A DNA stretch of 64,000 nt from contig OZ014411.1 of assembly GCA_963965975.1 (NCBI GenBank), positions 12,230,501 through 12,294,500 on the forward strand, given 5' to 3'. The notes beneath the pieces were generated by a model, which was given only the letters and a program-made list of their open reading frames with translations, ran no database searches and was not told the origin of the DNA. Both the position numbers and the translations under genes were made by a program. The DNA is from Xestospongia bergquistia. Its lineage: Eukaryota; Porifera; Demospongiae; Haplosclerida; Petrosiidae. Positions 6,201-43,465 of this stretch are shown one piece after another (positions within the stretch are counted from its first letter, which is position 1; each line of letters opens with the position of its first letter).

Positions 6201-9200
6201 ACCATGAGAATGAGTGAGCTTTACTCTAATCTTTAAACTGTGGTGAAGAGATAATAACTAGATATTTATCATGGTATTTGTTAATTGACCAATGAGATAA
6301 ATAAATTGTTGACCTCTTTTAATAGTGTTTAAGTTATTATAAACTTTTGTGTAAGGCTGTGGTTTCTAAGGTTATAACAAGTAATTTTGCTAAAACTGCT
6401 TTTTATAAGTCAATTAATTTTATTTATTATTACAATTGTTTAAATTTGTAATAATAATTCAGCAGTTTATGTAATTTAAAGATCTTGCATACAGAAGACA
6501 ATGTTCCTAAACTATTAAATATAAAAATGACTGAGATTTAAATATAACTTGAGGAATGTTTACGACAAATTACAGTGGTAGACTTGTATTTGTATTGATT
6601 AGATTATAGTAAGAGTTGTTGAGAGTAGTTTGTTTAATTAAGAGTAGTTGATGTGACTGATATTTTTAAAAGTAGATATAATAGGTTTATAATTTAGTTC
6701 ACATTAATGGGATTATTGTAATATATTTAGAAGGGGTCAACTCCAGTTATGTTAGCAGCAAAAAATGGCCACAAAGATGTAATTTCAATTTTAATGCAGA
6801 GAGGAGCCAATCTAGATCTTGGTGATGCAGTAAGTATTTATGTGCATATGTTATATTATAAATCCAGGGTTTCATCATTTTGAGTTTAATTGGGTTATTA
6901 TAAAAATCTCCTTTTTACTTCAAAATATTAAGAACTATTGAAATTTATCCATGTTATTGTTAAGGTAATAAGAATTATCTAGTCTTGACTAATCAATGTA
7001 TACTTGTAGGCTTCATATTTTTATCTGTGCCATAGATGCTTTTCCTATTTATTTAGCGTGTTAGTTGTCTAATGTTTGTATTTATTTAGTCTGTTAGTGA
7101 TCTAAGTTGACAGTCAATATTTGTCTTTTATTACAATAGGATGGATGGGTGGCTCTTCATTATGCAAGTTTTAATGGACATAATAATGTTGTTGAAATAT
7201 TACTCAACCATAATGCTGATATCGACATTGTTACTAAGGTAATTCAGACCATGAGAATGAGTGAGCTTTACTCTAATCTTTAAACTGTGGTGAAGAGATA
7301 ATAACTAGATATTTATCATGGTATACATCAATTGACCAAGGAGATAAATAAATTGTTCACCTCCATTAGTAGAGTTTAAATTATTATATACTTTTGTCTA
7401 AGGCTGTGGTTTCTAAGGTTATAACCAGGGATGTGTCAAGCATTTTGGTGCTTGTGCTTAAGAGTGCTTTAAGCACTTTTTTTGAAGTACTTGCAAGTGC
7501 TTTGAAGCATTTTGTTAATCAAAGTATTTGTGCCTGTACTTGTGCTTAAGCACTTAGTATAGTGCTTAGTAGTTTTTAGGCCAGACTGTTTCTGGTTGTC
7601 TGATAGTAAATTTGAAAAACTACTATTTATTCATTGTAATAAAAATTTTGAATTAACAATCTTATTAATATAAAATAAAGTACATGTTCTTATGCTTGTG
7701 CTCAAAGCTCTTTTAAAATGCTTTGACTTGGTACTTGAGCACTTTTTGTAGAAGTGCTTGAAAAAATGCTTAATGCTTCAAATACTTTTTAAAGTGCTTA
7801 CGCTTGTGCTTTAAGTACTATAGTGAGTGCTTGACCCCATCCCTGATTATAGCATGTAATTTTCCTAAAACTGCTGAGGTATTTTTAAATATTTTATAAG
7901 TCAATTTAGTTATTATTACAATCATTTTGATATTGTTCAATATTACTCGACCATAATGCTGATATCGACATTGTACTAAGGTAATTCAGATCATTGGAAT
8001 GAGTGAGCTTTACTCTAATCTTTAAACTGTGGTGAAGAGATAATAACTAGATATTTACCATGGTATTTGTTAATTGACCAAGGAGATAAATAAATTGTTG
8101 ACCTCTTTTAATAGTGTTTAAGTTATTATAAACTTTTGTGTAAGGCTGTGGTTTCTAAGGTTATAAGAAAGTAATTTTGCTAAAACTGCTTTTTATAAGT
8201 CAATTAATTTTATTTATTATTACAATTGTTTAAATTTGTAATAATAATTCAGCAGTTTATGTAATTCAAAGATCTTGCATACAGAAGACAATGTTCCTAA
8301 ACTATTAAATATAAAAATGACTGAGATTTAAATATAAACTTGAGGAATGTTTACGACGAATTACAGTGGTAGACTTGTATTTGTATTGATTAGATTATAG
8401 TAAGAGTTGCTGAGAGTAGTTTGTTTAGAGTAAGAGTAGTTTTTAAGTAGGTTTATTGTTGTTTAGGTTTGTAATGTACTAGTGTACTCATGTAAAACAT
8501 TTACAATAGTGTTAGTAGTAGATATAATTTACAATTGTTATAATATATTCCCTTAAATCATATTAATCTGGTTACTGTAATATATTTAGAAAGGGTCAAC
8601 TCCAGTTATGTTAGCAGCAAAAAATGGCCACAAAGATGTAATTTCAATTTTAATGCAGAGAGGAGCCAATCTAGATCTTGGTGATGCAGTAAGTATTTAT
8701 GTGCATATGTTATATTATAAATCCAGAGCATCATCATATTAAATTTAATTGGGTTATTATAAAAATCTCCATTTTATTTCAAAGTACTAAGAACTATTGA
8801 AATTTATCTATGTTAACGTTAAGGTAATAATAATTATCCAGTCTTGACTAATCAATATATACTTGTAGGCTTCATATTTTCATCAGGGCCATAGATGCCT
8901 TTACTTTTATTTAGTGTGTTATTGGTCTAATTTGACAGTCAAATATGTGTCAAGATGTAGCATACAGAAGACAATGCTCCTGAACTGTTAAACAAGCAAT
9001 GACTAAGATTTAAATATAAACTTTATGACGAATTACATTGATAGTCTTGTATTTGTATTGTTGAGAATATAGTAAGAGTTGTTGAGAGTAGTTTGTTTAA
9101 TTAAGAGTAGTTGATTTGACTGATAGTTTTAAAAGTAGATATAATAGGTTTGTAATTTAGTTCACATTAATGGGATTATTGTAATATATTTAGAATGGAA

Positions 9201-12200
9201 TGACTCCAGTTATGTCAGCTGCAAAAAATGGCCACAAAGATGTGATTCTGATTTTAATAGAGAGAGGAGCCAATCTAGATCTTGTTGATGCAGTAAGTGT
9301 TTAATATATGCATATGTTATATTATAAATCCAGAGTTTCATCAGTTTGAGTTTAATTGGGTTATTATAAAAAAATCCATTTTACTTCAAAATACTAAGAA
9401 CTATTGAAATTTATCCATGTTATTGTTAAGGTAATAATAATTATCCAGTATTGACTAATCAATATATACTTGTAGGCTTCATATTTTTATCAGGGCCATG
9501 GATGCTTTTACTATTTATTTAATGTGTTGGTGGACTAATTTAACAGTCAAATATTAATTTTGTCTTTTATTACAATAGGCTGGATTGGTGGCTTTTCATT
9601 ATGCAAGTAGTAATGGACATACTGATGTTGTTGAAATATTACTCAACCATAATGCCGATATCAACATTGTTACTAAGGTAATTCAGATCATGAGAGTGAA
9701 TGAGCTTTACTCTAATCTTTAATCTGTGGTGAAGAGATAATAACTAGATATTTATCATGGTATGCATCAATTGACCAATTAGATAACTAAATTGTTCACC
9801 TCCACAGTAGTGTTTAAGTTATTATACACTTTTGTCTAAGGCTGTTGTTTCTAAGGTTATAACATGTAATTTTACTAAAACTGCTGCGTTATTTTTAAAT
9901 TTTTTATAAGTCAATTTATTTATTATTACAATCATTTTAAAATTTGTAATAACAATTCAGCAATTTATGTTACTCAAAGATGTTGCATACAGAAGACAAT
10001 GTTCCTGAAACTGTTAAACGACCAATGACTAAGATTTAAATATAAACTTGATGATGAACTACAGTGGTAGACTTGTATTTGTATTGTTGAGATTATAGTA
10101 AGAGTTGTTGAGAGTAGTTTGTTTAATTAAGAGTAGTTGATGTGACTGATAGTTTTAAAAGTAGATATAATGTTGTCTAGGTTTGTAATGTCCTAGTATA
10201 CACATGTAATACATTTACAATAGTTAGTAGAGATAATTTACAATTGTTATAATATATTCCCTTGGTTCAAATTAATGGGTTTGTTATAATATATTTATAT
10301 TATAATATATTGACTAATGTAATTGCTTCATTACAAGTAAAGAAATATATTATACTCCTCTCGAAGAGGTGTATAGATTATTATACACTTTTGTCTGAGC
10401 CTACAGTTTCCAAGGTGATAAGAAGCAACTTTGCTAAACTTACTGCATTATATTTAAATTTTATATATGTCATTTTATTTATTATTGCAAACAGTTTTAA
10501 ATTTAGATTTGCAATAACTAAGTGAGCAGTTTATTGTACTCAATAATGTTTGATATAGAAGATAGTGCACCTAAAAGCATTAAACAAACAATGAGTAAAA
10601 TTAAAGTATGAATTTAAGGAATGCTGATGGTGAATTATAGTGGTATAGCCTTATATTTGTATTGATGAGATATAGTAAGAGTTGACAGTTCGTGATTTCT
10701 CTTTTATTACAATAGGATGGATGGGCAGCTCTTCAATGTGCAAGTCAAGAAGGACATACTGATGTTGTTGAAATATTACTCAACCATAATGCTGATATTG
10801 ACATTGTTAATAAGGTAATTCTGATTATGAGAATGAGTGTGCTTTACTCTAACTTTAATGTCCTAGTGTACTTATGTAATGCATTTACAATAGTGTTGGT
10901 AGAGATAATTTACAATCGTTATAATGTATTGCCTTAGTTCACATTAATGGGATTATTGTAAAATATTTAGAATGGAACGACTCCAGTTATGTCAGCTGCA
11001 AAAAATGGCCACAAAGATGTGATTCTGATTTTAATAGATAGAGGAGCCAATCTAGATCTTGTTGATGCAGTAAGTGTTTAATATGTGCATATGTTATATT
11101 ATAAATCCTGAGTTTCATCATTTTGAGTTTAATTGGGTTATTATAAAAATCTCCTTTTTACTTCAAAATATTAAGAACTATTGAGATTTAACCATGTTAT
11201 TGTTAAGGTAATAATAATTATCCAGTCTTGACTAATCAATGTATACTTGTAGGCTTCATATTTTTATCTGTGCCATAGATGCTTTTCCTATTTATTTAGC
11301 GTGTTAGTTGTCTAATGTTTGTATTTATTTAGTCTGTTAGTGATCTAAGTTGACAGTCAATATTTGTCTTTTATTACAATAGGATGGATGGGTGGCTCTT
11401 CATTATGCAAGTTTTAATGGACATAGTAATGTTGTTGAAATATTACTCAACCATAATGCTGATATCGACATTGTTACTAAGGTAATTCAGACCATGAGAA
11501 TGAGTGAGCTTTACTCTAATCTTTAAACTGTGGTGAAGAGATAATAACTAGATATTTATCATGGTATTTGTTAATTGACCAATGAGATAAATAAATTGTT
11601 GACCTCTTTTAATAGTGTTTAAGTTATTATAAACTTTTGTGTAAGGCTGTGGTTTCTAAGGTTATAACAAGTATTTTGCTAAAACTGCTTTTTATAAGTC
11701 AATTAATTTTATTTATTATTACAATTGTTTAAATTTGTAATAATAATTCAGCAGTTTATGTAATTCAAAGATCTTGCATACAGAAGACAATGTTCCTGAA
11801 CTGTTAAATATGACTGAGATTTAAATATAAACTTGAGAAATGTTTACAACGAATTACAGTGGTAGACTTGAATTTGTATTGATTAGATTATAGTAAGAGT
11901 TGCTGAGAGTAGTTTGTTTAGAGTAAGAGTAGTTTTTAAGTAGGTTTATTGTTGTTTAGGTTTGTAATGTACTAGTGTACTCATGTAAAACACTTACAAT
12001 AGTGTTAGTAGTAGATATAATTTACAATTGTTATAATATATTCCCTTAATTTATATTAATCTGGTTACTGTAATATATTTAGAAAGGGTCAACTCCAGTT
12101 ATGTTAGCAGCAAAAAATGGCCATAAAGATGTAATTTCAATTTTAATGCAGAGAGGAGCCAATCTAGATCTTGTTGATGCAGTAAGTATTTATGTGCATA

Positions 12201-15200
12201 TGTTATATTATAAATCCAGAGCATCATCATTTTAAATTTAATTGGGTTATTATAAAAATCTCCATTTTACTTCAAAAGACTAAGGATTATTGAAATTTAT
12301 CCATGTTATTGTTAAGGTAATAAGAATTATCCAGTCTTGACTAATCAATGTATACTTGTAGGTTTCATATTTTTATCAGGGCCATGGATGCTTTTACTAT
12401 TTATTTAATGTGTTGGTGGACTAATTTGACAGTCAAATATTTGTCTTTTATTACAATAGGATGGATTGGTGGCTTTTCATTATGCAAGTAGTAATGGACA
12501 TACTGACGTTGTTGAAATATTACTCAACCATAATGCCGATATCAACATTGCTAGTAAGGTAATTCAGATCATGAGAATGAGTGTGCTTTACTCTAATGTT
12601 TAATCTGTGATGAAGAGATAATAACTAGATATTTACCATGGTATACATCAATTGACCAATGAGATAAATAAATTGTTCACTTCTCATAGTAGTGTTTAAG
12701 TTATTATACACTTTTGTGTATAATAACTTAACAATTTTGCTAAAACTGCTTCATTATTTTTAAAGTCAATTAATTTCGTTTATTATCATAATTGCTTTAA
12801 AATTTGTAATAACAATTCAGCAGCTTATGTAACTGAAGAATGTTGCCTACAGAAGACAATGTTCCTGAACTGTTAAACATAAAAATGACTAAGATTTAAA
12901 TATAAACTTGATAAATATTTATGATGAATTACAGTGGTAGACTTGTATTTGTATTGATTAGATTATAGTAAGAGTTGATGCAGTAAGTATTTATGTGCAT
13001 ATGTTATATTATAAATCCAGAGCATCATCATTTTAAATTTAATTGGGTTATTATAAAAATCTCCTTTTTACTTCATGCAAAATACTAAGAGCTATTGAAA
13101 TTTAACCATGTTATTGTTGAGGTAACAATAATTAACAAGTACTGCCTAATCAATGAATTTTTGCAGACTTCATATTTTTATTGGGTTCCTGAATATTTCT
13201 ACTAAGCAAACAATGACTGAGTTTTAAGTATGAAGTTGATAAATGCTGATGACAATTTACAGTTATAGTGTTATATTTGTATTGTTGAGATTATAAGTAA
13301 GAAAGTAGTTTGTTTGAAGTAGGATACTGTTAGTAGAGATAATTTACAATCATTGTAATATGTTCCCTTGGTTCACCATATTGGGATTATTGCAATATAT
13401 TTAGAATGGATCAACTTCAGTTATGTTAGTTGCAAGTTTAGGACAGGAAGATGTAGTTTCAATTTCAATAGAGAGAGAAGCCAATCTAGACCTTGTTGAT
13501 GTCAATATTTGTCTTTTATTACAATAGGTTGGATGGGTGGCTCTGTTAGTATATACTGTTTAAGTTATTATAAACTTTTGTCTAAGGCTGTGGTTTCTAA
13601 GGTTATAGCAAATAAATTTTGCTAAAACTGCTGCGTTATTTTAAAATTTTTTATAAGTCAATTTATTTTTTATTACAATCATTTTAAAATTTGTAATAAT
13701 AATTCAGCAGCTTATGTATCTCAAAGATGTAACTCAAAGTGTACTCATGTCATACATTTACAATAGTGTTAGTAGAGATCATTTACAATTGTTATAATAT
13801 ATTCTGTTGGTTCACATTAATGGGATTATTGTAATATATTTAGGAGGGAATGACTCCAGTTATGTTAGCTGCAAGAAATGGCCACAAAGATGTGATTTGG
13901 ATTTTAATAGAGAGAGGAGCCAATCTAGATCTTGTTGATTCAGTAAGTGTTTATGTGTATTATAAATCCAGAGCTTCATCATTTTTAATTTAATTGGGTT
14001 ATTATAAAAATCTCCTTTTTACTTCAAAATACTAAGAGTTTATATTTAAAGAAGATCCAGGATTTTGGGTAACAGGTATATAGTTTATATGCTATGTTGA
14101 TAGTTATTTATAATGTTCACAAATACCAATTTTTTTGTCTGGTTTCATGACTTATACTATGAACAAGGTTTACTCCGAAAATTGAACTTTTTCACAAATC
14201 TGCTTCAACTTTGGATCTGATTACATACAGAAGCTATAGTTGTCAAATACCCAAATGAAAGTCTAAATAAAAGCAATATTGTTGATGTACAAATGGATAC
14301 AGTAAAAGAAGCATTAAAAGTCAGGGTGGGCTTTGCAAAAAAAGATAAGTTTGGTGCTCTATTTTAATTTTTGTGATAGCTTCACTGAGGTCCCCAAGAC
14401 CTTCTTCAATACCAGATTTCACTTGATGAAAACACTCTCAGCTCAATCTAAAAGACAACAGCCCATTCAACCAATAATACCTCTAAAATACCTTAAAAAA
14501 CTTGCAATAATAATACTCTTACAACTCCTTCATTACTCACTGTACATAGTTAATTTCATGACCTGAATATGACATTAGTCATTTTGTTTATCTATTTTCA
14601 CTGTATTGATCTTTTTTAATGCCTATCATAATCTAAATAGGCTTAGCTCTGCTATTAGTTAGTGTCATTAGTCAATATGAACATTCTTCTTCCTCTGATG
14701 TGGTATTTCAATCCTCTACATGGTGTGCCTGTGTACAAGATTTCTGAATCTCACATTTGATGTACTGCCACTGGCCTTCCCTTTAGCACTTTACAATGAT
14801 TTGATGTTGTTTATGCTATATATGGCATTCTTTGTCTCTAATGTAGCAACTTTGAGCTGTGATCTGTAGCAATTTTTACTTTGTTATTCTATGCTGAGCT
14901 CTCTGTACTATAAGTAATGGCTTACCCTCAATTTATGTTCAATGACTTAAGATTAATCATCCAGAGTTGTAACAAGCTGATGATAATATCTCTTCATAGA
15001 TAATTGCAATGGCAATTGTGGTCCTTCTATTGTAGCTAAGTGTACATCTATAGATTGAAGTCCTAATTTGTCATCAGTGTAAATAAGACACGTGGACTCA
15101 ATCTCTGGATTGTGCTGTGTTTTTATTACTGAAGTCTCACTAGGAAACAGTCTGCATGATGTGAAATAGGGAGAGAGGCTGGCTGTGCAAAGCTACAAGG

Positions 15201-18200
15201 TACTTGCTTGTTACCTGATAATAAATGAGACTTGGACAAGGCAGACAATAGTATTATTGTCCCATTCTCTTTAGCAAGTCAAATGATTTCTGATTGGTAC
15301 TGTATATCTACTGATCAAAAAGAAATGTTGTTGAAGAACTGCATATTTCACAAATCTTCATTGAAATTATCCAGTTCTTATCCACCCTTTTTCATTCAAA
15401 CCATATTTAGTACAAAGAATATTGTTTGCTATCAACATGAAGTCAAGATATTAATATCAAATATCATATCACCGATGGTGGAAATATCCTAGCTGTATTT
15501 TCATATAATAAGCTAAAACTGTAACTCAGCCCTTTTCCCCAGATGTACTAATACAAAAATTTTAATACCATTCACTTTTAATAGATTAGGAGAGTTAAGA
15601 TTTAGTGGCATCCCTGTTTCAAAAACTTTGTATATTCTCCCTACATTATTCTATAAATATTTCTGTGTCAAGGTGTATTCTAGAAGATCAAAATACTTTT
15701 TATGTGTCTTTTACTGTATTCATTTGTACATCAACAATATTGCTTTGTTTAGACTTTCATTTGGATATTTGATGACTCTAGCAGAAACAGAATTTGAGTA
15801 TTAAATTCTGATAGCTTTCTTCTTTGTACATGTACGTACTATATTAGGACCAATCACTTCCTAATATGGAAGTAAAAACATATTTGTCCTCATTTGCTGC
15901 ACTTTAATGAATGTAAACTCATGTTTTCGTTTGTAATCTTAATTTACATTATTTCTAATTTTAGATACTCATCATAGAATAACGATTCTGGACTTCTTTA
16001 AGCTGAGCATAAAATCCAGAAAATAATCTATACTTACTGCATAAAGTTGAAAAATATGCTCTACTTTAGGTGCAATGTTCTTTCTTTGCATCAATTTCTT
16101 GCTGTAAATATAAATAATTATACATAAAATGGTTTCCAAAGACTAGCTCTTGGTAGTGAACTGCAGAAACCACCACTTTTGTTTCTAAACTCTCAACGAG
16201 ACCTAAAAAGGTCATACATCATAATTGAGCACGTTACCTCTTGAATTTGATGTCCAAACTGTTTATTTATATTGAGTTTTTGGGAATCAGAGACAGAGGA
16301 GGCAGAACAATCAACAAATCCAATGTTTGAACAATTATGTCTGTGTTGCTTAGAAAATGAAAGATATTGATCGATTTGAGTGAGATATTCACTTTTGTCT
16401 GTCAATTCTTTTTAATGACCAATCCAGGCCATCCTACATAGGCAATACATTGTATAGTGTCATGTTTATATATATTATATTAGAGGATATATAGTGTATA
16501 GTGTGAGTTAGTGATATAAATAATATTAATGTTATACTATTCAATGTATTTATGTCAATTAATTTATCTAGAGACAATGGACAGTTCTACATATTGCCTC
16601 AAGTAAAGGTCACTTCGAAATAGTCCAGTTACTCTTACTTTACCAAGCAGATCCTAATATTTGTGACAAGGTTTGTATATAACTTCATTTAGTGATAATC
16701 TACTATTACACAGGATGGTAATACTGCATTGCATATTGCCTGCAAAGAAAGTCATATAAATGTTATACAATTGTTGCTGTCTCAAGGAGCAGATATGACT
16801 ATTAAAAATATTGAGAGTAGGACTTCATTAGATGAATGTTGTGACACAAACAAAGATAATATTATTAGTCTTTTCTCTAAGTACAATCCAAAACGAGGTG
16901 AGTTAATAAACAACAAGTATGTAGTACTCCTACTTGTTTGATTTGTTATTATTTAGTGTTGCAAGATGTGTCTGAATGGAATATTGAATACTTCAATAAA
17001 GAGCAGATTTTTGAGAAACCAGACTATGGAGTCAAGTTTGTCATTCCACCAGCATCAGTGGAACTAGGGCAAAAAGTCACAACTGATATCAAACTAGTTG
17101 CACCAGAGGAGTCAGAGATCATCCTCCCTCCAGATGTTGAGCTTGTTAGCTGTTTATATAAGATTGAAACAAAGGGAAAATTCTCCAAATCTATTGAGCT
17201 TCATCTCCAACATAACATTGAAATAAGGTCACAGGAAGAATGTCAACAGCTTGCTTTTATAACAGCTGAAGGGCCACCACCTTATAAGTTTGAACTTGTG
17301 CCAATTGATATCAATCGAGAGTTCAAATCTAACAAGATTTCTGGTGTTATAAAAGTTTCCGATTTTATTGTAGTTGGTGCAGTTAAGCAAAAATTAGAAA
17401 GTGCTCTCTGTCAGCAACTGTCTTCTAGCTACACTATGACAGTGTTCTTTAAGCACATATTAAAGTCCAGTTGGGCAATTCAAGCGGTGATCACAAAGAA
17501 CCTTGGACCCTTTATTAAGGTGCAATTATGCAAAATTTGAAAATGCTAACAAAAATTGTACTGTCATTATACAATTTTTATTTTATAGTATATATTTTAT
17601 ACTGTTATTCTGTTCTAGAGAGTGAACACAGAGAAAGGTTTTGAAAATTGGAGTCAGTTACAACAATTCTCTTTCCACTTTGATCCAAACATCAATAAAG
17701 TGACAATTTTACTAGATGATGACTGCTATAACATCAAGCCATTGAATAGGCCCCATGAAGTAAATTCATAAAATTTTGCTGTATCACTACAATTAATAAT
17801 TTTGACAAGGTTACAAAAGAAGATGTTGATAATAGTAGTCCTGACACTACTCTACTTAGCTTAAGTTTTGAGGCTACACTTAAAGCTGAGCAGAAGGAGC
17901 TCACAGATTTAGAGCTCACTTTTAAAGGAATAAGAGATGAAAAGACTTTAACTATTACTAGTCATCAATTACAATCAATGCAAAGCAACTCAGGTATGGT
18001 ACATAAAAGTATTTGAATTTATTTTTCTATCATATAGATAAAATTATTGAGTCCACTGCTCCTTCTGACACTAAACAAAAAGGGACTTTGTCTCAAAAAA
18101 AAATTTTGGATTTGTTATGTAAGTTACCATCTTTTTAGATATTATAATAACAACTTTTCTTTCTTTTTTAGGTAAAGAGCCTAAGAAAAAACACCTGATA

Positions 18201-19177
18201 CAAACGCTTCACCCAATAAAGTATCAGTGGAATGTTATTGGTGAGCAACTTGATGTGGATTTTGGTGATATAAAGTCTCTCCAATACGATGTGCAATATA
18301 GTGATACCATAAAATTGTCTGAAATCCTTCAAGTTTGGATAAATAAGAAAACTTGTGAAGTATCTTGGGAAAAGATTATCTCTGTTGTAAAAAATCGTCC
18401 AGTTGAAAATACTAGACTAGCTGATGAGATATGTGAATTTTTAGCAAGACCTGAGATCATGAATGAATATCTTCCTTCTGATCAACCTGGTAAAATTAAA
18501 TGATTATGATTGATAAAATCATCCTAGATTGTTTTGGAAGATCCTGATTATACAGTAAAACACTGATTAGAACTCTACAGATTGTATTATTAACAGCAGT
18601 GTCTGTGGAAGACTATAGCTATAGAATACTATAAATATAGGCAGTGAACCAAACTATTGAATTTTATCAAACATACTCATCGTTGTAGCACTAATAGTTA
18701 GGGTTAACTAAAATTCATAGGTTGCTATATAATTGGTAGTTAAAGCAAAGATCACTTTTAATTGTCATGAATAGCAAAGTCTATAATAAAATGAAACTAA
18801 TGGGCATATTTATAATTATACATATACCATATTATTGTCCATAATAATTATAGGACTACCTGGCAACCTGAGCATATTTGACAGTAAAAATAATGATAAA
18901 TTATATTTATTGATTGGTCCTGTGTCACTCTAGGTAAAGTGATTACCACTTTTGATTCTCCACCTCCAATTCTATCAAAACCTACTGAGATAAAAGGTAT
19001 AACTATATAGCTATAATGTTAAATATGTTAATAACTAAAAGATAGTTACACAATAACTAGACAAAATTCATGCCATGAACTTATTTGAAGAATTTAAATA
19101 TTTAATTATATTGTTGTTGAGTAGAGGTAGATGAAATGGAAAAAGAAGCTCCCTTGCAGTCATTCTATCTTATTGCA
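3295..19177 (+). CDS. module A: ankyrin-repeat / ZU5 / UPA-like / death-domain protein (multi-exon)
   Basis: Spliced coding region of 989 codons in this model. Exons: 3295-3387, then 99-bp ankyrin exons at 6093, 6731, 7140, 8590, 9194, 9579, 10716, 10971, 11383, 12083, 12460, 13844 and 16572; 16714-16897 (last ankyrin repeat); 16957-17519 (ZU5); 17619-17759 and 17810-17993 (UPA-like); 18038-18118; 18172-18489 (death domain); 18934-18996 and 19125-19177 (proline-rich linker). All use GT-AG and phases join. ANK-ZU5-UPA-DD is the ankyrin/UNC5/PIDD-like layout of cytoplasmic adaptors; ankyrin repeats bind partner proteins and the death domain self-associates. No stop ends the last exon, which closes in phase 0. 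Either it is read through (stop about 13 codons later), or transcripts stop just after the death domain (TGA at 18501), or it splices on to module B at 19973. The true start is uncertain. Confidence 0.75.
3681..3745 (+). pseudogene. decayed ankyrin exon
   Basis: Remnant of a 'GH-D-VVEILLNHNADI' type exon. The stretch GGTCATACTGATATTGTTGAAATA is followed by a deletion, then ends AATAAG|GTAATTCAG like the intact exons. The 5' acceptor and part of the repeat are gone. Confidence 0.6.
4281..4379 (+). pseudogene. decayed ankyrin exon with lost donor
   Basis: An AG acceptor and 32 good codons (EGLTSVILAAYNGHKDVVSI...) match the 'TPVMLAAKNGHKDV' exon type. The end reads AAT TGA and the usual GCA|GTAAGT has become GCATTAAGT. 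It therefore has an in-frame stop and no donor, and is probably skipped. Confidence 0.65.
4662..4681 (+). pseudogene. truncated ankyrin exon start
   Basis: The sequence GATAGATGGTCGGCTCT after an AATAG acceptor matches the first codons of the 'DGWSALH' exons. It then runs straight into unrelated sequence. Confidence 0.5.
5001..5020. repeat. (GAT)n microsatellite
   Basis: About six GAT triplets inside an intron of module A. Confidence 0.8.
5813..5833 (+). pseudogene. truncated ankyrin exon fused to downstream intron
   Basis: Acceptor AATAG is followed by seven codons (DGWAALH) and then TGA. The sequence after that (GAGTTTAATTGGGTTATTAT) is the intron that normally follows the other ankyrin exon type. 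This is a deletion joining two array units, the kind left by unequal exchange. Confidence 0.6.
7436..7845. mobile_element. hAT-like MITE, 410 bp, with 8-bp target duplication
   Basis: The ends are CAGGGATGTGTCAAGCA and TGCTTGACCCCATCCCTG, an imperfect inverted repeat of about 17-20 bp. The flanking 8-mers GTTATAAC (7428-7435) and ATTATAGC (7846-7853) agree at 6 of 8 positions. Paralogous introns at 6380, 8160, 9858 and 11658 carry the uninterrupted sequence (GGTTATAACAAGTAATTTT-like), so they serve as empty sites. The interior has many AGTGCTT/AAGCACT motifs and no transposase. An 8-bp duplication with CAGGG ends fits the hAT superfamily. Confidence 0.8.
7929..7980 (+). pseudogene. decayed ankyrin exon remnant
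   Basis: 3' half of a type-1 ankyrin exon (ATATTACTCGACCATAATGC...ATTGTACTAAG|GTAATTCAG). It has lost its acceptor and one base (TTGT-ACT instead of TTGTTACT), so it is frameshifted. It lies just 3' of the MITE. Confidence 0.6.
12973..12987 (+). pseudogene. residual 3' tip of an ankyrin exon
   Basis: Only GTTGATGCA|GTAAGT of a type-2 exon remains. It is fused to upstream intron sequence and followed by the usual downstream intron. This is a deletion scar of the array. Confidence 0.5.
13405..13503 (+). pseudogene. decayed type-2 ankyrin exon fused to next intron end
   Basis: An acceptor and about 32 codons (NGSTSVMLVASLGQEDVVSI...) run to GTTGAT, where the GCA|GTAAGT donor should be. Instead the sequence jumps into the 3' end of the type-1 upstream intron (GTCAATATTTGTCTTTTATT) and a truncated type-1 exon at about 13529. 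The conserved NGH has also changed to LGQ. Confidence 0.6.
14241..15774. repeat. 66-bp inverted repeat enclosing 1.4 kb inside an intron of module A
   Basis: Left arm 14241-14306 and right arm 15710-15774 are reverse complements with few mismatches (shared AAATGAAAGTCTAAA and AGCAATATTGTTGATGTACA). The intron holding it (13943-16571) is far longer than the others of the array, so this is probably an insertion. On the minus strand short open stretches look coding-like (for example near 14955-15065 and 16240-16405) but have stops between them. I do not recognise a protein. It could be a fossil transposon or a fossil gene in the opposite direction. Confidence 0.5.
16572..16897 (+). other. last two ankyrin-repeat exons of module A
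   Basis: 16572-16670 (RQWTVLHIASSKGHFEIVQL) and 16714-16897 (DGNTALHIACKESHINVIQL). These two are clearly diverged from the near-identical array repeats and sit next to ZU5. The second exon ends in phase 1 (CGA G|GTGAGT) and joins the ZU5 exon. Module B keeps the second (22824-23007) but I found no copy of the first. Confidence 0.8.
16957..17519 (+). other. ZU5-domain exon of module A
   Basis: 187 codons plus the shared split codon. The ZU5 signature is YGVKFVIPPASVELGQKV near the start, followed by the beta-strand-rich stretch ILPPDVELVSCLYKIE and SIELHLQHN. ZU5 occurs in ankyrins, UNC5, PIDD and ZO-1. The equivalent exon of module B is 23066-23625, with about three quarters identical residues by eye. 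It is followed by the UPA-like exons 17619-17759 and 17810-17993. Confidence 0.8.
18172..18489 (+). other. death-domain exon of module A
   Basis: Residues from LHPIKYQWNVIGEQL through LADEICEFLARPE follow the six-helix death-domain pattern: W..IG.QL, a middle L..VW and W..II, and a final LADEI helix. Directly after the donor, reading on would stop at TGA 18501 (GKIK-stop), a possible alternative end for the protein. The splice to 18934 recreates P-G-K in frame. Confidence 0.75.
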
Positions 19178-19409
19178 GTAAGTTCATTTGTTACTATAAT
19201 GATTGCTGATGATGATTGAATTAAATAAAAATAACATAACAGGCTTACTATTTTTGGCTTAGTCTACTGACAATGAAATAATAATTATGATATAAAATTT
19301 TTGTCAACATTTTTAAAAATCTACTTTGCGAAATATGGGCTGATCATATTGAACCAATTAATGGTCAATTCTGGAAAGCTGCTATACTGTATACAATAAT
19401 ATATTGAGA

Positions 19410-19972
19410 ATATGTTCCATTAAATATTATTATATATATTTTCTAATTAATACATCACAATTCTGGAGTGCTAAACAACTAAATTATAGTTTGAATAGTG
19501 GTTTCTAAGTTTAAATTATGTTTACTAATGAATTGATGTCTTTGTGTTCGAGTTTATTCAAACTTCCCTGTAGTGATTTTTTTTCTTCAGTTATTGTTGT
19601 TTTAAGACACTGTCTACTTCTTTTTTCATATTCATACTATACATGTTATCAAGTAGTTATAGAACATCATTTATGTGGAATACCTGTAAAGTTATTGTTA
19701 CAGGTTTTAGATACGTTAAGTGATATTGGAAGGTAATATAATAATGTTATCCTGTTTGTGTTAGTATTAGATATAACACTGAGTCAGAGATTGTCACTAT
19801 ATCAATCATATTTTTCTTAAGATATTGTATACACAAAGTTCATTACTAAATGATTAAGTAATAATTATTTAATATCAATGAAGTAAAATGATCAAAAATT
19901 AATGATAATATTTTTAAAATATAAATTTAAAGTTAGGAAATTATATCAGTAGTATTTATGTTTTTACCTTAG
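19410..19972 (+). repeat. second copy of the module 5' flank; junction of the A/B tandem duplication
   Basis: From about 19230 to 19410 the sequence matches the intron inside module B at 25446-25625 (TGGCTTAGTCTACTGACAAT). From about 19410 on it matches 2780-3294. The switch marks the duplication joint, placed inside introns on both sides. No coding exon with an ATG was found here. Confidence 0.7.
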
Positions 19973-22900
19973 AATGACAGTCTAATTGAGTCTGCTAGAA
20001 AAGGAGATTTGACTGGAGTAAAAAATGCTCTCTTAATTAAAGCCAATATAAATGTTGTATCTTTGGTAAGTCTACTTAATTTATTGTACAAGACAATATC
20101 ACTAAAGTAGCTCGTTTAAACAATGATTTCTAGCAGGCTTCATATTTTTATTGGATCTGTATTTGTTTTACTATTGGTTTACTCTTTTAGTAGTCAAATT
20201 TGACATTTAATGATTTGTTTGTTATTATAATAGAATGGATGGTCGGCTCTTCATTGTGCAAGTAGTAAAGGCCATACTGATGTTATTGAAATATTACTCA
20301 ACCATAATGTTCATATTGACATTGTTACTAAAGTCACTGATATTATGAGAATGAATGTACTTTACTCTAACATTTAATCTGAAGTATAGAGATAGTAACT
20401 AGACTTTAAAATAGTAAGCCTTAATTAACAAATGAGATCTGTTCATTATAAGTCCATTAATAAATGTTACGCCTCCCAGAAATGTAAATAAGTTATTATA
20501 GACTTTTTTACTGATAAGTTTTAACTGGCAATAATGTTGTCTAGGTTTATAATGTACTATTGTATCATATATTCCATTTGCAATAGTATTATTAACAGAG
20601 AATAAATAACAAATTGTTATGATATGTACTCTTGGTTGACATGAATGTGTTTGTTATAACATATTTAGGATGGATCTACTCCAGTTATGTTAGCTGCAGC
20701 TAATGGTCAGAAAGATGTGATTTTAACTTTAATACAGAGAGGAGCTAATCTAGACCTTGTTGATGTAGTAAGTGTTCAATGTACATATGTTATATTGTAA
20801 TTCCCAAATGGTAACTTTTTGAGCACACCCTTGTTAATATCAAAATCTCCTTTTTACTCTAAATTACTAAGAAGTTACCAAATTTATCCAAGTTATTGTC
20901 AAGGTAGTAATTATTTTTGATTTGCCTAAGCAATGGTTTCTTGGAGGCTTTATTTTTTATTGGATTATTGTATGTTTTTTACTGTTAGTTTACTATGTTA
21001 GTGGTGAAATTGACATTTAATGATTTGTTTGTTATTACAATCGGATGGATTGTCGCCTCTTCATTTTGCAAGTAGTAAAGGCCATTCTGATGTTGTTGAA
21101 ATATTACTCAACCATAATGTTGATATTAATGTTGTTACTAAGGTAACTGATATCATGAGAATGAGTGTACTTTAACATTTAATCTGAAGTATAGAGATAG
21201 TAACTAGACTTTAACATACTAAGCCTTAATAAACTTTTTTCTGAGACTGTGCTGTTAAAGTTATAACAAAAATTTTAGAAAACTTCTTAATTCTATTTAA
21301 AAGCAGTATATTTATTGTCTCAAACAGTTTTAAAAGTAGGTTTATAATGACTAATTCAACAGCTTGTGTAACTGAAGGATGCTGTATATGAAAGATAATG
21401 CTTTTATATGCATTTAACAAGCAATGAATCGAGATTTCAGAATAAACTTTATGAATTCAAACGATAAATACACTGTTAGTCTTGTATTTGTGTTTATGGC
21501 ATTATGGTAAGAGTAGTTGATGTGACTTATACTTCTTAAACTGGATATAATGTTACCAAGGTTTTTGTAAAATACTGTTGCATCATATATTAATAACATT
21601 TGCAGTAGTATTAATAGAGAAAATTTACAAATTGTTATTATATACACTCTTGATTGACGTGAATGTGTTTATTTTAAAATATTTTTACTGTAAAGTAGTA
21701 AGAAGTTACAAAATTTATCAAAGTTATTGTTAAGGTAATAATATTTTTTGACATTTCCTAAACAATGGATTCTTTGAGGCTTTAATATTTTTATTGGGTC
21801 CTTGTATGTTTTTACTATTAGTTTACTATTTTAGTGGTCAAAATGATGTTTAATGATTTGTTTGTTATTATAATAGAATGGATGGTCGGCTCTTCATTTT
21901 GCAAGTAGTAGAGGCCATACTGATATTGTTGAAACATTACTCAACCATAATGCTGATATTGACCTTGTTACTAAGGTAAGTTATATCATGAGGATGAGTG
22001 TGCTTTACTCTAACATTTAATCTGACATGTATAGATAGTAACTTGACTTAACCATGCTTAGCCTTAATTGAGAAATGAGATTGGTCCGTTACAAGTCAAT
22101 TAATAAATTGTACACTTCCCAGAAGTGTATAAGTTATTATAGACTTTTTCTGAGTCTATGCCTTTTAAAGTTATTAGAAGGAATTTGGCTAAAACTTCTA
22201 AAGTATATTTTTAATTTTCTAAAAATCAGTATATTTATTGTTCCAAACTTTTTTAAAAATAGATTGTAGTAACTAATTCAACACTTTATGTAACTGAAGG
22301 ATGTTGGATATTAAAGATAATGATGCATTTAACAAGCAATTGCTGAGTTTTAAGTATAAAGTTAGTGAATGCTGATGATGAATTACAGTGGTAGTCATGT
22401 ACAGTGGTAGTGTTAACTCATGAATAATATGAAGGGGGATAACAAACCTTACCCAGAATAGTTTTGTTCATGACAGTAACAAAAATTTCTTTAAAAACTC
22501 GTGCATTTTTAAGAAAAGTTAAGCAAAGAAATAAATATAAAGCATATTCTAAAAGAAAGTAAATATAAGGATGGCTAATATCAGTACAATACAAAGAATG
22601 CAAACAAGATTATAGGGATGACAAATGCATCATCCCTACATAATAGCACAGATGTTTCAATCAATTTAGGATACTCACCAACTATATAATTCACTTAGTA
22701 TTATCATTGATATATATTTGCATTCTATGCTTATGCTATTATGTAAGGATAATGTAATTGCCATCCCTATTTCTGGGAATGTTAGTCTATGACTTCTTTC
22801 AGTAATAATCTACTTTTACACAGGATAGTAATACTGCATTGCATATTGCTTGCAAAGAAGCTCATATAAATGTTATACAATGTTTGCTATCTCAAGGAGC

Positions 22901-25900
22901 AGATATGACTATTAAAAATATTGAGGGTAAGACTCCATTAGAAGAATGTTGTGATACATGCAATGATGAAATTATTGGTCTTATTTCTAAATATGATCCA
23001 AAACGAGGTGAGGTGTTAAACAAAACAATATAACGCTTATACTTGTTTAATTTGTGATTATTTAGTTTTGGATGATGTGTCTAAATGGAATATTGAATAC
23101 CTCAATGAAGAACAGGTTTTTGAAAAATCAGACTATGGAGTCAAGTTTGTCATTCCACCAAAATCAGTGGAAGTAGGACAAGAAGTCACAACTGAAGTAA
23201 AAGTAGTTGCACCAGAGGAGTCAGAGATCATCCTCCCTCCTGATGTTGAGCTTGTAAGCTGTTTCTATAAGATTGAAATAGCAGGAAAATTCTCCAGACC
23301 TATTGAACTTCATCTTCAACATAATGTTGAAATAAAGTCACCAGAAGAAAGTCAACAGCTTGCTTTTATAACAGCTAAAGGACCACCACCTCATAAGTTT
23401 GAACTTGTGCCAATGGATATTGATCAAGTGTTCAAACCTTACGACAATTCTGGTGTTGTAAAAGCTTTTGATTTTTGTGTGTTTGGTATAGTCAAGTGGC
23501 TAAAAGCCTCTTTCTGTCTACAACCATCTTCCACCTATGCCATAACAGTTTTCTTTAAGCAAATTTTAAAGTTCAGTTGGGTAATCCAAGCTGTGATCAC
23601 AAAGAATCTTGGACCCTTTATTAAGGTAGTCAATTAAATAAATATGCAAAATTTGAAAATGCTAACTGAAATTTTACTGTCTCTGCACAATTCTCATCTT
23701 ATAATATTGTCTACTGTTCTATCTGTTCTAGAGAGTGAACGCAGAGAAGGTTTTTGAGAATTGGAAACAGATTGAGCAATTATCTTTCCACTTTGATCCA
23801 GATGTCAATAAGGTGACATACTTACTGGATAATGACTGCTACGACATTGAGCCACGGAAAATACCCTGTCATGTAAAGACTTTAAATTTTGTTGTATTGC
23901 TATGATTATTATTTTTTACAAGGTCACAAAGGAAGCTGTTGATAACAGTCGTCCTGACTCTGCTCTACTTTACTTTAAATTTGAAGCCACACATAAAGCT
24001 GAGCAGGAAAAGCTTTCAAATTTAAAGCTTACATTTAAAGGAATGAGAGATGAAGAGAGTGTAATTATTACTAGTGGTGAATTACAATCAATACAAATCC
24101 ACAATGGTATGATACATAATGACATATATTTGCACTGAATTTGTTTTTGCTGTCATAAATTATAGATACAATTATTGAGTCTCTTTCTCCTTCTGTCTCT
24201 AAAAATGTAGAGCCCATGTCTCTGAAAGAAATTCCGAAGGATTTGTTAGGTTAATTAGCATATTTTTCCCTATAGTATGATAACAACATTTCCTTCCTTA
24301 TTAGATAAAGGGCCTAAGAAAAAACATCTAATGCAACTACTTCACCCAATAAGGAATGATTGGGAAAATATTGGGGAACAACTGGAAGTGCCACATGATG
24401 ATATAATGTCCATAAGACAACCCAATATAGCACATGATAATACTAGAAAACTCTCTGCAGTCCTTCAAGTTTGGAAAGATGGAAAAACTTGTGAATTTTC
24501 TTGGAGAATGATCATTACTGTGATAAATAATCCTCCAGTTGAAGAAAAGAGAGTAGTTGATGAGATATGCAGTTTTTTAGCAAGACCTGAGATCATGAAT
24601 GAATATCTCTCTTCTGATCAATCTGGTAAAATTAATATGATAAAGCTATCCTAGAATAGTTTTGGAAGATCCTGACAATATAGTAAAACACTGACAGGAG
24701 CTACACAGATTGTATTATTAACAGTAGTATGTATGGAAGACTATAGCTATAGAATATTATAAATATATAGGCAGAGAAGCAAGCTATTGAGAAACTTCAT
24801 CAAACATACTCATTATTTTAGTATTCATGGTTTGGGTTAATTAAATTCATAGGTTGCTGTATGCATTGGCATAGATCACTTTCTATTGTCACATATAGTT
24901 ATAGTCTACAATAAGACAAAGTAAATGGATGTAATTATGTTCAGATGCAATGTTGTCCATAATGATTTTAAGATGACCTGTCAAGCTGTGCATGCTTGGC
25001 AGTAAAATTATATTAATTTTTTTTAACAATAGTTCCTGTGTCACTCTAGGTCAAGTAATTTCCACTTTTAATTCTCCACCTCCAATTCCATCAAAACCTA
25101 CTGAGATAAAAGGTATAACTATATAGCTATAATATTAAATATGTTAATAACTAAAAGATACTTACACAATAACTAGACAAAATTCATGCCATAAACTTAT
25201 TTGAAGAATTTAAATATTTAATTATATTGTTGTTGAGTAGAGGTAGATGAAATGGAACAAGAAGCTCCCTTACAGTCATCAAATCCTATTGGAGTAAGTT
25301 AATATGTTATTATGATTTATTGCTATAATATTATGTAATTTAATAAAACTCTTATATATTGTAGTACAAGTGGTTATACATAAATGAAAATGTTCTTCTG
25401 AAGATTGGTGATGATGTATATACTTGAATTTAATAAAATAAGATTATAGACTTATTACTATTGGCTTAGTCTACTGACAATGAAATAATAGTTTTAATAT
25501 AAGATTTTGCTAGGTATATTTTTTAAAAATACTTTACGAAATATAGGCTGATCATATTGAGCCAATCAATGCTCACTTCTGGAAAGCTACTATACTGTAA
25601 ATTATAATATATAAGAATTTGTTTAAGAATATGACAAAAATATCTCTTTTAGTTTGCTGCTCACCATCTTTATAAACAAGCTAAACAATGGGAGGAGAAA
25701 GATAATGATATGATAGTAGCTACTAAACATATGGCCAGACTGATGATGTATATGTCAAAGCTTGCCCAGTAAGTGTTATTGAGTGAAATATATACTTCAA
25801 TTTCTAGTTTATTTCATGTTTATGGAATTAAATATCATTAATATAAATATTTATACCTGTAGTTAAGGGTCTATAATTTAGCATTGAAACTAGAAAATAT

Positions 25901-27626
25901 ACTCTGAGTAATGTATTAATGAATTACATTCAGTTTGACAATAATTATAATATTCTTTCTTTTATAGAGGTGAAGAGAGTGACTTCAATTTCGAAAAATT
26001 TATCCAAACAGCTAATCCTATCGTCAAAGACAATAAGGAAGTTGTTAAAATAGCTACAAAAGTTTCTGAACTCTGTACAGATATACAACTGAAAAGTGTG
26101 AGTTACAGAGACTTTGACAACAAAAATATCCATACACAGAGTACCTATGTATCTGTAGTAATTAAGATTATATTTAACCCTTACTGCACACTGCATACGC
26201 AAGTGTTACTGTACTTTCATGTCTGTCGATGTCTGTCTATATGATAGCTGGCAAAATTTGAAGTATGAAAGAATTTTCGAAAAAGTACAAGCAAGATGGC
26301 ACAAATGTCTGCCCCAATAAAACTACTATGGGAACAAAGTACAATTGTCTACAATTTTACTGTCAGAATTTTCATGTTTCATTTTGTGGTTATGGTGAAT
26401 TTTACTTACCTTCTCAGCTTTCTTTGCTAACAGTTGTAGCAGTAAGTAAATATATCTAGAAGGAGATCTAGCTATCATAAGACTATTGATATAATAAATT
26501 TACAAAAGTTACACTAAGTCTACAAATACACAAGTTAGCAGAGAAAAAATCTTACAAAACTGCACTTGACTGCGTCTGTCACTGCCACACCCATCATATG
26601 ATCTTGGCGCGCCTTTAGTTTTAACACATTTACCGTTATTTATCATGCATCATTTACATGAAATAAAGAAGTCTTCATACAATTCTGTTGCCTATATTAT
26701 TATAGGTAATTAACAAGTTCTTATGCAGTGCCAATATAGCAATTGCAAAGCAAACTGACTCACAAGTGTTCGTTATGTATTCAACTTGTTAAGACTTCTC
26801 ACATGAATTAATTTGTGATTTTTTTCACACATTAATTTGTTATTAGCAAGCTTTTTTCTTTATATTTAACAAAGTGTTGTATATTCTTTACAGACTCTAT
26901 CACGAGTTCTTGATGAAGTTCAAAGTTTTGAGACACTATTCGAAATTAATAGCCGTGTGTTTACAAAACTAGAAGATGGTAAGTTGTGAACTGAGTGGTA
27001 CTAATAGTCAACCATTGCTATAAATCACCAACAGAAGTATATATAACTAATTTAACCAAGATACTATTTCCCCTTAACTATTAGTTAACTTAAAAGACAA
27101 TAAAAGTAACTAGTAATAATAAAATAGTTTGTAAGGTTTGACTATATGCATTTTAGACCAACACTTGGTCTAAAATGCATATAGTCATCTTTGCTATACA
27201 ACTCATCCTACAAATGTGAAAGTAAATTATATGATTTGATTATATTGAGTTATTTGGTACTTTGTGTCTTAGAAGATTAGCTATATTCCACACAGTCAGT
27301 TGATACTCCTATGATTAAAAGCTCCTTGATAGCAGTGTTTTATTATTTTGGTATAATATACCTTTTATCCTCAAATTATAAGCATGTATACATTATATTA
27401 TGCATATATGTATTTTAAATGTAGTATTACATATGTACCTTCTCTGCCTTGTTTGTGCTTTCTTCACTTCACAGATCCTGAACAATTCACTAGATTGGTG
27501 ACACACAATGCTAAGAATCTGATGAATGCTGTCAGTAAAGTACTTAAGGCTACAGAGAATGCTTTCATGAAACTACCTTCAGACGTTCGTGCACACTTGA
27601 CTGGTCTGAACTGGGTTAAAAAATAA
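19973..27626 (+). CDS. module B: ankyrin / ZU5 / UPA-like / death domain / vinculin-alpha-catenin-like tail protein
   Basis: Exons: 19973-20065, 20234-20332, 20669-20767, 21044-21142, 21877-21975, 22824-23007 (ankyrin); 23066-23625 (ZU5); 23732-23872 and 23923-24106 (UPA-like); 24166-24249; 24305-24625 (death domain); 25050-25112 and 25241-25293 (linker, SPPPIPSKPTEIKEVDEME); 25653-25768, 25968-26097, 26894-26978 and 27475-27626 (tail, stop TAA). The sum is 2562 nt, 854 codons. The tail has WEEKDNDMIVATKHMA, a middle LCTD, and HNAKNLMNAV, which align in order with the C-terminal bundle of alpha-catenin and vinculin, the F-actin-binding part. Likely role: a cytoplasmic scaffold linking ankyrin-bound partners and death-domain assemblies to actin (inference). 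No initiator Met was found; it is probably the 3' part of one transcript with module A. The acceptor of exon 21044 is CG instead of AG. Confidence 0.8.
23066..23625 (+). other. ZU5-domain exon of module B
   Basis: Starts in the split codon after the last ankyrin exon and ends TTTATTAAG|GTAGTC. It carries YGVKFVIPPKSVEVGQEV, ILPPDVELVSCFYKIE and PIELHLQHN, the same landmarks as module A. Followed by RVNAEKVFENWKQIEQL in the next exon. Confidence 0.8.
24305..24625 (+). other. death-domain exon of module B
   Basis: Landmarks are LHPIRNDWENIGEQL, LSAVLQVW, SWRMIITVI and VVDEICSFLARPE. The splice to 25050 uses the same phase as in module A, producing S-G-Q-V. Confidence 0.75.
25653..27626 (+). 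other. vinculin/alpha-catenin-like helical tail (four exons)
   Basis: Exon 1: FAAHHLYKQAKQWEEKDND then MIVATKHMARLMMYMSKLA. Exon 2: helices around FIQTANPIVKDNKEVV and KVSELCTDIQLKS. Exon 3: TLSRVLDEVQSFETLFEI. Exon 4: FTRLVTHNAKNLMNAVSKVL, ending LNWVKK. The order W..xNDxIV..K.M...M.M, then a C-D motif, then AKNLMNAV is that of the alpha-catenin C-terminal domain. Only module B has it; module A is cut just before it by the duplication joint. Confidence 0.75.
27140..27186. repeat. perfect 22-bp inverted repeat with 3-nt spacer
   Basis: GACTATATGCATTTTAGACC and its complement face each other across CAC, inside the intron 26979-27474. The arms are perfectly paired. Confidence 0.9.
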
Positions 27627-27645: not shown

Positions 27646-27651
27646 AATAAA
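27646..27651 (+). terminator. polyadenylation signal AATAAA
   Basis: Canonical AATAAA 20 nt after the stop codon of module B, the right place for a short 3' UTR. Confidence 0.6.
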
Positions 27652-42054: not shown

Positions 42055-43465
42055 GTGACAAACAAGACCTCGCCCTCTTTAAAAGGGAGTGGCTTATACT
42101 TGCACAAATTACAGTAGGCGTTAGTAATTTGCTAGTCAAAGTTTTGCGTTTCTTCTAATTTTGTAATAGAGAGACAATAAATAAAATCAAGCTAAGTAAC
42201 TATTTCAAATGCCAACTAAGATAAGGCTCCTATTTTAGTAGCTATATACATAGATTACATGATGTAGACAAAACTTGTATTCAGATCCTAAGTATTATTA
42301 GTTCTGTGTTATGTTATAGACATGTGTCATATGTTGAAAGTGTGTAATAACGTAATAATGTTTGTCAATGCTATAATACTTGTAGCAATTTAGTATAGTC
42401 AATAAATTTTCAATTACTTTAAGTTTGTAATTGTAAATTATATTATAATAATTATGTAATTATAAGTTGATGGAATATACTATCAATTTACAATTATGTA
42501 ATGGATACATAATTTTGCATATGTGTTTTACACTTAGGCTACCTTACTTACTGTAGTTGTTAGTACATGCCAAAATAATAAACTAGTGATACACTATATG
42601 TGCTAGAGTTGTATGAGCAAACTTTGTGCAGACTAATTACATTTTTTTCATTATGATTATATTTCTTGTTCATCAATGTTGTTTGTAACTCAGAGAGATT
42701 GTGTTAGTAATTCCCGGGAGTCTGTAGTCTGGTAGGCCAAACACAATAAGCAGATTAAGTATATCTGTAAACTAATTAAAAGTGGTACAAAGAGTTGTAA
42801 ATAAAAGGAACAACTATTCTTTTTTCCTTACATTTGTTGTGCTTAAAAACAATTTATGTATAAATATCAGCATATTAGATCAGACACTATATCACTTTTG
42901 GTTACTTTTCCTATTCTTGTTATAAGTCATAATATCTGCTAGACAGGTTAATATTCAGCATTTCAAGAGAACATACCATGTGGTCAGTCTCATGAAAGTT
43001 AAATGGATGATGTTCAGAGTTTATAACAATTATGATACATTAAATGTCATAGGTATACATGTCGTTTAATTATGTTTGTGGACAATGAGATAGTGTACAC
43101 GTGGTTTGTTCACTTTTAAATAAAACAACAAGTGTTTCTTAGTTCTTGTTGCACAAACTAAAAATAATAAGCTAGTAAGGCTAGACAAGTGGATACCAGA
43201 TTAATTATGCATGCAGTAGTTATAATTCATTGCAGATACAGCATGTGGCATACAACTATTGAGGCCATGTGCTGTATTAGCAATGAATCAGCAATAGCAC
43301 TTGGCACCATAGGATTTCAAAATAAATGATCCATACACTAGCAATCTGTGGTTTGTTGTATGGATGTTTGGTGTTTGTGATGTCACAGTTTCTGGATGCA
43401 GTGTTATAGCACTGTATCTGTGTACAGTGTTGTGATCTCATTTCATCAGGTTTAAGTACCTTGCA
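42055..43465. other. spacer upstream of HLCS
   Basis: The HLCS promoter should lie in the first few hundred bases (TTTAAAAGGGAG at about 42078 is TATA-like on either strand). No gene is visible. Two short repeats of the form ATGCAGTGTTATAGCACTGTATCTG near 43397-43421 recur at 45340-45440. Confidence 0.5.

What the first reader, a model, noticed from the sequence alone, without database searches (positions are those of the whole stretch)
19973..27626. ANK-ZU5-UPA-death-domain protein fused to a vinculin/alpha-catenin-like tail
Seen: one continuous splice chain, 854 codons with matching phases, runs from ankyrin exons through ZU5 and a death domain into four exons encoding WEEKDNDMIVATKHMA, LCTD and HNAKNLMNAV. 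Known: these motifs in this order mark the C-terminal F-actin-binding bundle of alpha-catenin/vinculin, and ANK-ZU5-UPA-DD is the layout of ankyrins. I know of no described protein joining the two. Inference: an ankyrin-like adaptor that carries its own actin-binding tail, in an animal near the origin of junctions and death-domain signalling.
Basis: partly seen in the sequence, partly recalled or inferred. Interest (0 to 1): 0.88.

Follow-up and report, generated by a model that had tools for sequence, protein, structure and literature searches.

The report
Death-domain adaptor with vinculin tail
An animal genome, probably a sponge's, carries what looks like one gene joining an ankyrin-repeat death-domain adaptor to the actin-gripping tail of vinculin, a combination I did not find described; no RNA data were at hand to prove that both halves are made as one protein.

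Summary
The reading is largely right. An in-phase AG-GT exon chain (820 aa, 16 exons) runs from ankyrin repeats through a ZU5-like exon and a death domain into two linker exons and four exons encoding a vinculin tail. Pfam: Vinculin 104.9 bits (cut-off 38.1), Death 23.1 (22.6), ZU5 19.2 (below 21), no UPA. The tail is vinculin's (E 1.8e-26), not catenin's (1.1e-7). Corrections: the 854 codons include an ankyrin exon without AG acceptor; no start codon was established; it is not a canonical ankyrin. A tandem copy upstream (3295-19177) has the same kinds of exon, linkers included, but no tail; homology stops about 30 bases before the first tail exon, so under a simple tandem duplication the order death domain, linker, tail is older than it. 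The ZU5 exon gave 160 hits, itself and copy 1 among them; the last tail exon gave two besides itself. Most likely an exon-shuffled fusion in a large ANK-ZU5-death-domain family, tethering signalling to F-actin. Transcription across the join is untested; the own-genome search failed in 18 tries.

The parts
19973..20065 (+). ankyrin-repeat exon 1 of copy 2 (no start codon; begins in phase 0)
   Evidence: 77% aa identity to 3295-3387
20234..20332 (+). ankyrin-repeat exon 2 (weak donor AAA|gtcact)
20669..20767 (+). ankyrin-repeat exon 3
21877..21975 (+). ankyrin-repeat exon 4
22824..23007 (+). last ankyrin-repeat exon
   Evidence: copy 1 counterpart 16714-16897
23066..23625 (+). ZU5-like exon
   Evidence: Pfam ZU5 19.2 bits, cut-off 21; 160 hits incl. 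itself and copy 1; low-confidence fold, weak best PDB matches are ankyrin and UNC5b entries
23732..23872 (+). exon at the UPA position; UPA not detected
23923..24106 (+). exon at the UPA position; UPA not detected
24166..24249 (+). short spacer exon before the death domain
   Evidence: dN/dS 1.77 over 27 codons between copies
24305..24625 (+). death-domain exon
   Evidence: Pfam Death 27.4 bits for the exon, cut-off 22.6; copy 1 counterpart not detected at E<=0.1
25050..25112 (+). proline-containing linker exon 1
   Evidence: counterpart 18934-18996 in copy 1
25241..25293 (+). linker exon 2 (holds an in-frame ATG)
   Evidence: counterpart 19125-19177 in copy 1
25653..25768 (+). vinculin tail exon 1 (H1, H2; helix limits recalled)
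25968..26097 (+). vinculin tail exon 2 (H3, start of H4)
26894..26978 (+). vinculin tail exon 3 (H4); not hit on its own by tblastn of human vinculin
   Evidence: for the miss
27475..27626 (+). vinculin tail exon 4 (H5, short C-terminal arm, stop)
   Evidence: AATAAA at 27646
3295..19177 (+). tandem copy 1: ankyrin exons, ZU5-like exon 16957-17519, DD-position exon 18172-18489, linkers 18934-18996 and 19125-19177, no vinculin tail found
19416..19478 (.). junction of the tandem duplication (homology to 25623 ends, homology to 2808 begins)

Best explanation
One split gene, member of a large family of ANK-ZU5-death-domain adaptors (probably sponge), that gained the C-terminal end of a vinculin gene by exon shuffling. 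Shown: an in-phase exon chain; a vinculin tail covering all five helices with its stop; a tandem duplication whose right edge lies just before the tail, which under a simple duplication makes the order death domain, linker, tail the older state. Inferred: the chain is transcribed and spliced as one; the repeats bind a partner, the death domain recruits other death-fold proteins, and the tail anchors the complex to actin filaments, so that signalling is confined to, or switched by, the cortical cytoskeleton. The upstream tail-less copy would be an untethered form or the first half of a longer double-module protein.
For: In-phase chain without stops over 16 exons. Vinculin 104.9 bits, Death 23.1, ankyrin families up to 142.1. 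tblastn of that vinculin against the window: 6 rows at E<=10, three on tail exons, three at chance level (E 4.5-5.9), no head exon. Copies 1 and 2 share DNA from the last ankyrin exon to the linkers with matching AG/GT borders and open frames; homology ends at 25623, about 30 bases before the tail. In copy 2 no AATAAA between death domain and linker, one 20 bases after the tail's stop. Last tail exon found on two other ENA contigs with the same stop. A sponge vinculin (Oscarella) is reported to interact with actin in vitro (PMC6820919, passage).
Against: No RNA evidence and no established start codon. Linker exon 2 holds an in-frame ATG, so the tail could start on its own. The variant signal ATTAAA lies at 24840, between death domain and linker, and in copy 1 an AATAAA lies at 18785 in the same intron and an ATTAAA at 18495. 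AATAAA is common here (27 sites in 16.5-29 kb), two in the intron between linker and tail. The linker's likeness to vinculin's proline-rich linker is not significant by itself (473 of 5000 shuffles as good). The linkers show no purifying selection (dN/dS 1.14, 39 codons). Residues 173-820 of the chain found nothing at E<=0.001 among 4732 candidates. ZU5 below cut-off, UPA absent; ZU5-to-DD region has no PDB sequence match at E<=10. The copy 1 death-domain exon is not seen by Pfam. The two relatives of the last tail exon score 16.3 and 16.8 bits for Vinculin, below the cut-off, as single exons.
Confidence: 0.6

Rival explanations
1. Two neighbouring genes: the adaptor ends just after the death domain by reading into the intron (stop at 24652-24654), and the tail is a separate short actin-binding gene or a relic of a vinculin gene, perhaps starting at the ATG of linker exon 2.
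For: Reading on from the DD exon gives a stop after a few residues in both copies; an in-frame ATG lies in linker exon 2; ATTAAA at 24840 and, in copy 1, AATAAA at 18785 lie between DD exon and linker; no transcript seen.
Against: Linker exon 1 stays open, in phase and with AG/GT ends in both copies, which a separate tail gene would not need, though gene conversion may have kept it alike; in copy 2 no AATAAA between 24625 and 25050; no vinculin head exon found in the window.
Confidence: 0.24
2. A form of the best explanation: one giant gene in which both ANK-ZU5-DD-linker modules are spliced in series and share one start (upstream of copy 1) and one tail. Its odds lie within those of the best explanation.
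For: No phase-0 start candidate for copy 1 in 2780-3294 and none shared by the copies; an ATG|gtaagt lies at 73-81 upstream of copy 1; copy 1's last linker exon ends on a codon border and the exon at 19973 begins in phase 0.
Confidence: 0.28
3. A decaying locus: a chance fusion that is no longer under selection.
For: One ankyrin exon lacks its acceptor; dN/dS between copies is 0.63 from last ankyrin exon to DD and above 1 in the spacer exon and the linkers; the last tail exon of two close relatives differs by several residues and a 3-aa gap while the adjoining intron stretch, read as protein, is nearly the same.
Against: The other exons keep frame and splice sites; dN/dS is below 1 over 489 codons (no test against 1 was run); the last tail exon reads open in this and two other contigs.
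Confidence: 0.13

Closest known systems
Vinculin (tail domain, Vt), incl. VIN1 of PDB 6bfi (a sponge vinculin, recalled)
   Same: Five helices H1-H5 in order (limits recalled); I997 and V1001 kept; a proline-containing linker precedes it
   Different: No vinculin head found; C-terminal arm ends at WVKK and lacks the last five residues with Y1065; H4-H5 loop seven residues shorter in the alignment
Canonical ankyrins (ANK repeats - ZU5 - ZU5 - UPA - DD)
   Same: Order of ankyrin repeats, ZU5, death domain
   Different: One ZU5-like exon, no detectable UPA, a vinculin tail behind; PMC5135030 (passages) could not identify repeats plus that cassette in nine sponge species
UNC5 / PIDD-type ZU5-UPA-DD proteins
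   Same: A single ZU5 followed by a death domain; the low-confidence ZU5 model matches UNC5b weakly (rank 7, E 0.043)
   Different: Ankyrin repeats in front, no HFS self-cleavage motif in the chain (motif recalled), vinculin tail behind
Alpha-catenin actin-binding domain
   Same: Same family of bundles; the AKNLMNAV stretch resembles catenin's (recalled)
   Different: 35.2 bits against 96.4 for vinculin

Membership tests
Vinculin family, tail domain | Profile match above Pfam cut-off | tested here: met
   98.7 bits for the tail alone, cut-off 38.1
Vinculin family, tail domain | All five tail helices present in order | tested here: met
Vinculin (whole protein) | Head domains D1-D4 | tested here: not met
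   only tail exons match in the window at better than chance; Pfam matches profile 640-847 of 852
Vinculin family, tail domain | Binds F-actin | not testable with these tools
   I997 and V1001 kept; binding not measured
Ankyrin | ZU5-ZU5-UPA cassette | tested here: not met
   one ZU5 match, below cut-off; no UPA at E<=10
ANK-ZU5-death-domain adaptors | Ankyrin repeats next to a ZU5 | tested here: inconclusive
   ankyrin families met, ZU5 19.2 bits against a cut-off of 21; the exon has 160 hits, 120 listed, 33 of them with a precomputed ZU5 and one (P0077) with ankyrin repeats in the same open frame
Death-domain proteins | Profile match above Pfam cut-off | tested here: met
   27.4 bits for the exon, 23.1 for the chain, cut-off 22.6; copy 1 exon not detected; fold model of no use, pLDDT 42.3
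PIDD/FIIND-type self-cleaving ZU5 | HFS cleavage motif | tested here: not met
   no HFS in the 820-aa chain printed (read by eye); motif recalled
Single fused gene | One transcript from DD to tail | not testable with these tools
   no RNA data held

The most novel reading that the evidence does not exclude
A single long protein with two ANK-ZU5-DD modules in series and one vinculin tail: a death-domain scaffold bolted to F-actin, so that cytoskeletal tension or rearrangement gates a death or immune signal. It would be a direct covalent link between the actin clutch of cell adhesions and death-fold signalling.
Probability: 0.2. Interest if true: 0.78.

Novelty: new variant of a known kind. Interest (0 to 1): 0.52.

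Why it matters
Vinculin's tail is known (to me) as part of vinculin. Grafted onto a death-domain adaptor it would mean that an early-branching animal wired such adaptors straight to actin. Sponges are reported to hold large sets of death-fold proteins (Amphimedon, passages of PMC8195603). The locus also catches exon shuffling together with a tandem duplication, which helps to order the events.

Tried and rejected
Catenin origin of the tail: rejected, 35.2 against 96.4 bits. Vinculin head exons in the window: none found. Linker as a proven vinculin linker: not significant (473 of 5000 shuffles for both exons together, 532 of 5000 for linker exon 2). Shared phase-0 start exon in the duplicated upstream stretch: none. 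Relatives of the ZU5 alignment in bacterial/archaeal genome contigs and viral contigs: 54 and 191 pattern matches, none confirmed. Residues 173-820 of the chain against the protein collection: no hit among 4732 candidates. ZU5 to DD against PDB sequences: no hit at E<=10; with ankyrin repeats included, 460 matches, the 60 shown all best-matched on the repeat end. ZU5 fold, from the window exon and 40 of the 120 listed relatives: pLDDT 58.7; best PDB match E 0.011, none at E<=0.001, yet ranks 1-14 of the 50 rows shown (629 at E<=10) are entries on ankyrin, some with spectrin, or on UNC5b. Death-domain fold from two sequences: useless, pLDDT 42.3.

The tail was not sent for structure prediction: that tool takes sequence that the window's DNA gives letter for letter, and I judged that a spliced tail is not that. 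Whether the genome holds an intact vinculin or more such fusions could not be asked: the genome search did not complete.
Full report
What is there. The window (30% G+C) is intron-rich DNA that looks like a sponge's by its gene content (my inference; no tool named the organism). Between 19973 and 27626 on the + strand lie 16 exons with AG/GT borders that join in one phase into 820 aa. In order: five ankyrin exons, a 560-base ZU5-like exon, three short exons, a death-domain exon, two linker exons, four vinculin-tail exons and a stop at 27626, with AATAAA at 27646.

Domain evidence. In the 820-aa chain Pfam gives ankyrin families at up to 142.1 bits, Vinculin 104.9 (cut-off 38.1), Death 23.1 (22.6), ZU5 19.2 (21, below cut-off) and no UPA at E<=10. 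Linker plus tail match PDB vinculins at E 1.8e-26 and catenins at 1.1e-7. The ZU5 exon gave 160 hits at E<=0.001, itself (P0001) and copy 1 (P0043) among them; 120 were listed, 33 of these with a precomputed ZU5 domain. Its fold model is poor (pLDDT 58.7), yet ranks 1-14 in the PDB are entries on ankyrin or UNC5b, the best at E 0.011, none at E<=0.001. Copy 1 scores lower: ZU5 17.4 bits, and its death-domain exon is not detected at E<=0.1.

Is the join real? The strongest evidence is a tandem duplication. DNA 22768-25348 matches 16658-19230, 25403-25623 matches 19201-19416, and 19478-20115 matches 2808-3438, all at about 80%. So a unit from about 2800 to the intron before the tail was duplicated head to tail, the junction lying at 19416-19478. 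Copy 1 has the ankyrin, ZU5, death-domain-position and both linker exons, in frame with AG/GT borders; tblastn at E<=0.01 found no tail there. Since the right edge of the unit lies about 30 bases before the tail exon, a simple tandem duplication implies that the sequence read death domain, linker, tail before it. Between copies dN/dS is 0.63 over 489 codons from the last ankyrin exon to DD and 1.14 over 39 linker codons. The intron between the linker exons differs at 3 of 128 sites, the linker exons at 12 of 116 (Fisher p 0.014): this suggests a local gene conversion followed by change in the exons, and shows no constraint on them.

Against the join: no RNA; no established start codon; an in-frame ATG in linker exon 2; a variant polyadenylation signal ATTAAA at 24840 between DD and linker, and in copy 1 an AATAAA at 18785 in the same intron and an ATTAAA at 18495; the linker's resemblance to vinculin's linker is reached by 473 of 5000 shuffles; AATAAA is frequent (27 sites in 16.5-29 kb), two in the intron before the tail.

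Other copies. The last tail exon found three proteins among three candidates: its own contig (653,791 bases) and two others on contigs of 2360 and 3737 bases, both 88% by BLASTP over 90% and 81% of the query. These carry three more residues in the H4-H5 loop and nearly the same intron stretch read as protein: close relatives or other haplotypes, not distant orthologues. So in that collection the ZU5 exon is common and this tail exon rare, as far as one 89-aa query can tell.

Mechanism. Most likely an adaptor of the ANK-ZU5-DD kind whose tail pins it to actin filaments. Binding by the repeats, recruitment by the death domain and actin binding are inferences from the families; none was tested. 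A long-gene variant, both modules sharing one start and one tail, is open: copy 1 ends on a codon border and the exon at 19973 begins in phase 0, and no start exon shared by the copies was found.

Literature. Searches that answered: 0 papers; 5; 15; 1; 20 of 61 listed; 9; 20 of 115 listed; three failed. Passages only were read, in PMC8195603, PMC5968619, PMC4265756, PMC6040629, PMC5135030 and PMC6820919. They speak of sponge vinculin and catenins, death-fold expansions in Amphimedon, and canonical ankyrins not found in the sponges surveyed; none of those passages names this fusion. The library is open-access only.

Verdict. An in-phase and probably single gene that joins an ANK-ZU5-DD adaptor to a vinculin tail: a new combination of known parts, of moderate interest until a transcript is shown.

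Noticed in passing
3295-16839: Copy 1 holds about seventeen ankyrin-like stretches by tblastn (my count), some broken (for example a stop at the end of 4281-4376).
   Followed up: partly
about 18930-19190 and 25046-25306: Stretch around the linker exons far more alike between the copies (intron 98%) than the other introns compared (66-83%): likely recent gene conversion, with the exons inside it more diverged than the intron.
   Followed up: partly
2990-3089 and 19663-19762: Island upstream of ankyrin exon 1, about 92 of 100 sites alike between copies (my count), without an obvious shared start codon.
   Followed up: partly
25550-25600 and 19342-19392: Well conserved patch in the intron before the tail; my reading gives ADHIEPIN..FWKA in both copies; could be an old exon.
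   Followed up: no
27140-27186: Perfect 22-base inverted repeat with a 3-base loop in the last tail intron (read).
   Followed up: no
47770-51534 and 33-35 kb: 1255-aa open frame without stops, and shorter frames of like kind, with weak DUF7630 matches below cut-off.
   Followed up: no
41173-42078 (-), 57177-57887 (-), 63360-63605 (+), 52861-53217 (-): Neighbours: biotin-protein ligase N-terminal domain, TRAF zinc finger, SH2 domain, PHD finger (ten frames chosen).
   Followed up: no
1010-1260: Imperfect tandem repeat built on CCTACTCCCATTTCGTCTATTCCCAAAAGAACAGTTCTGTT-like units (read).
   Followed up: no
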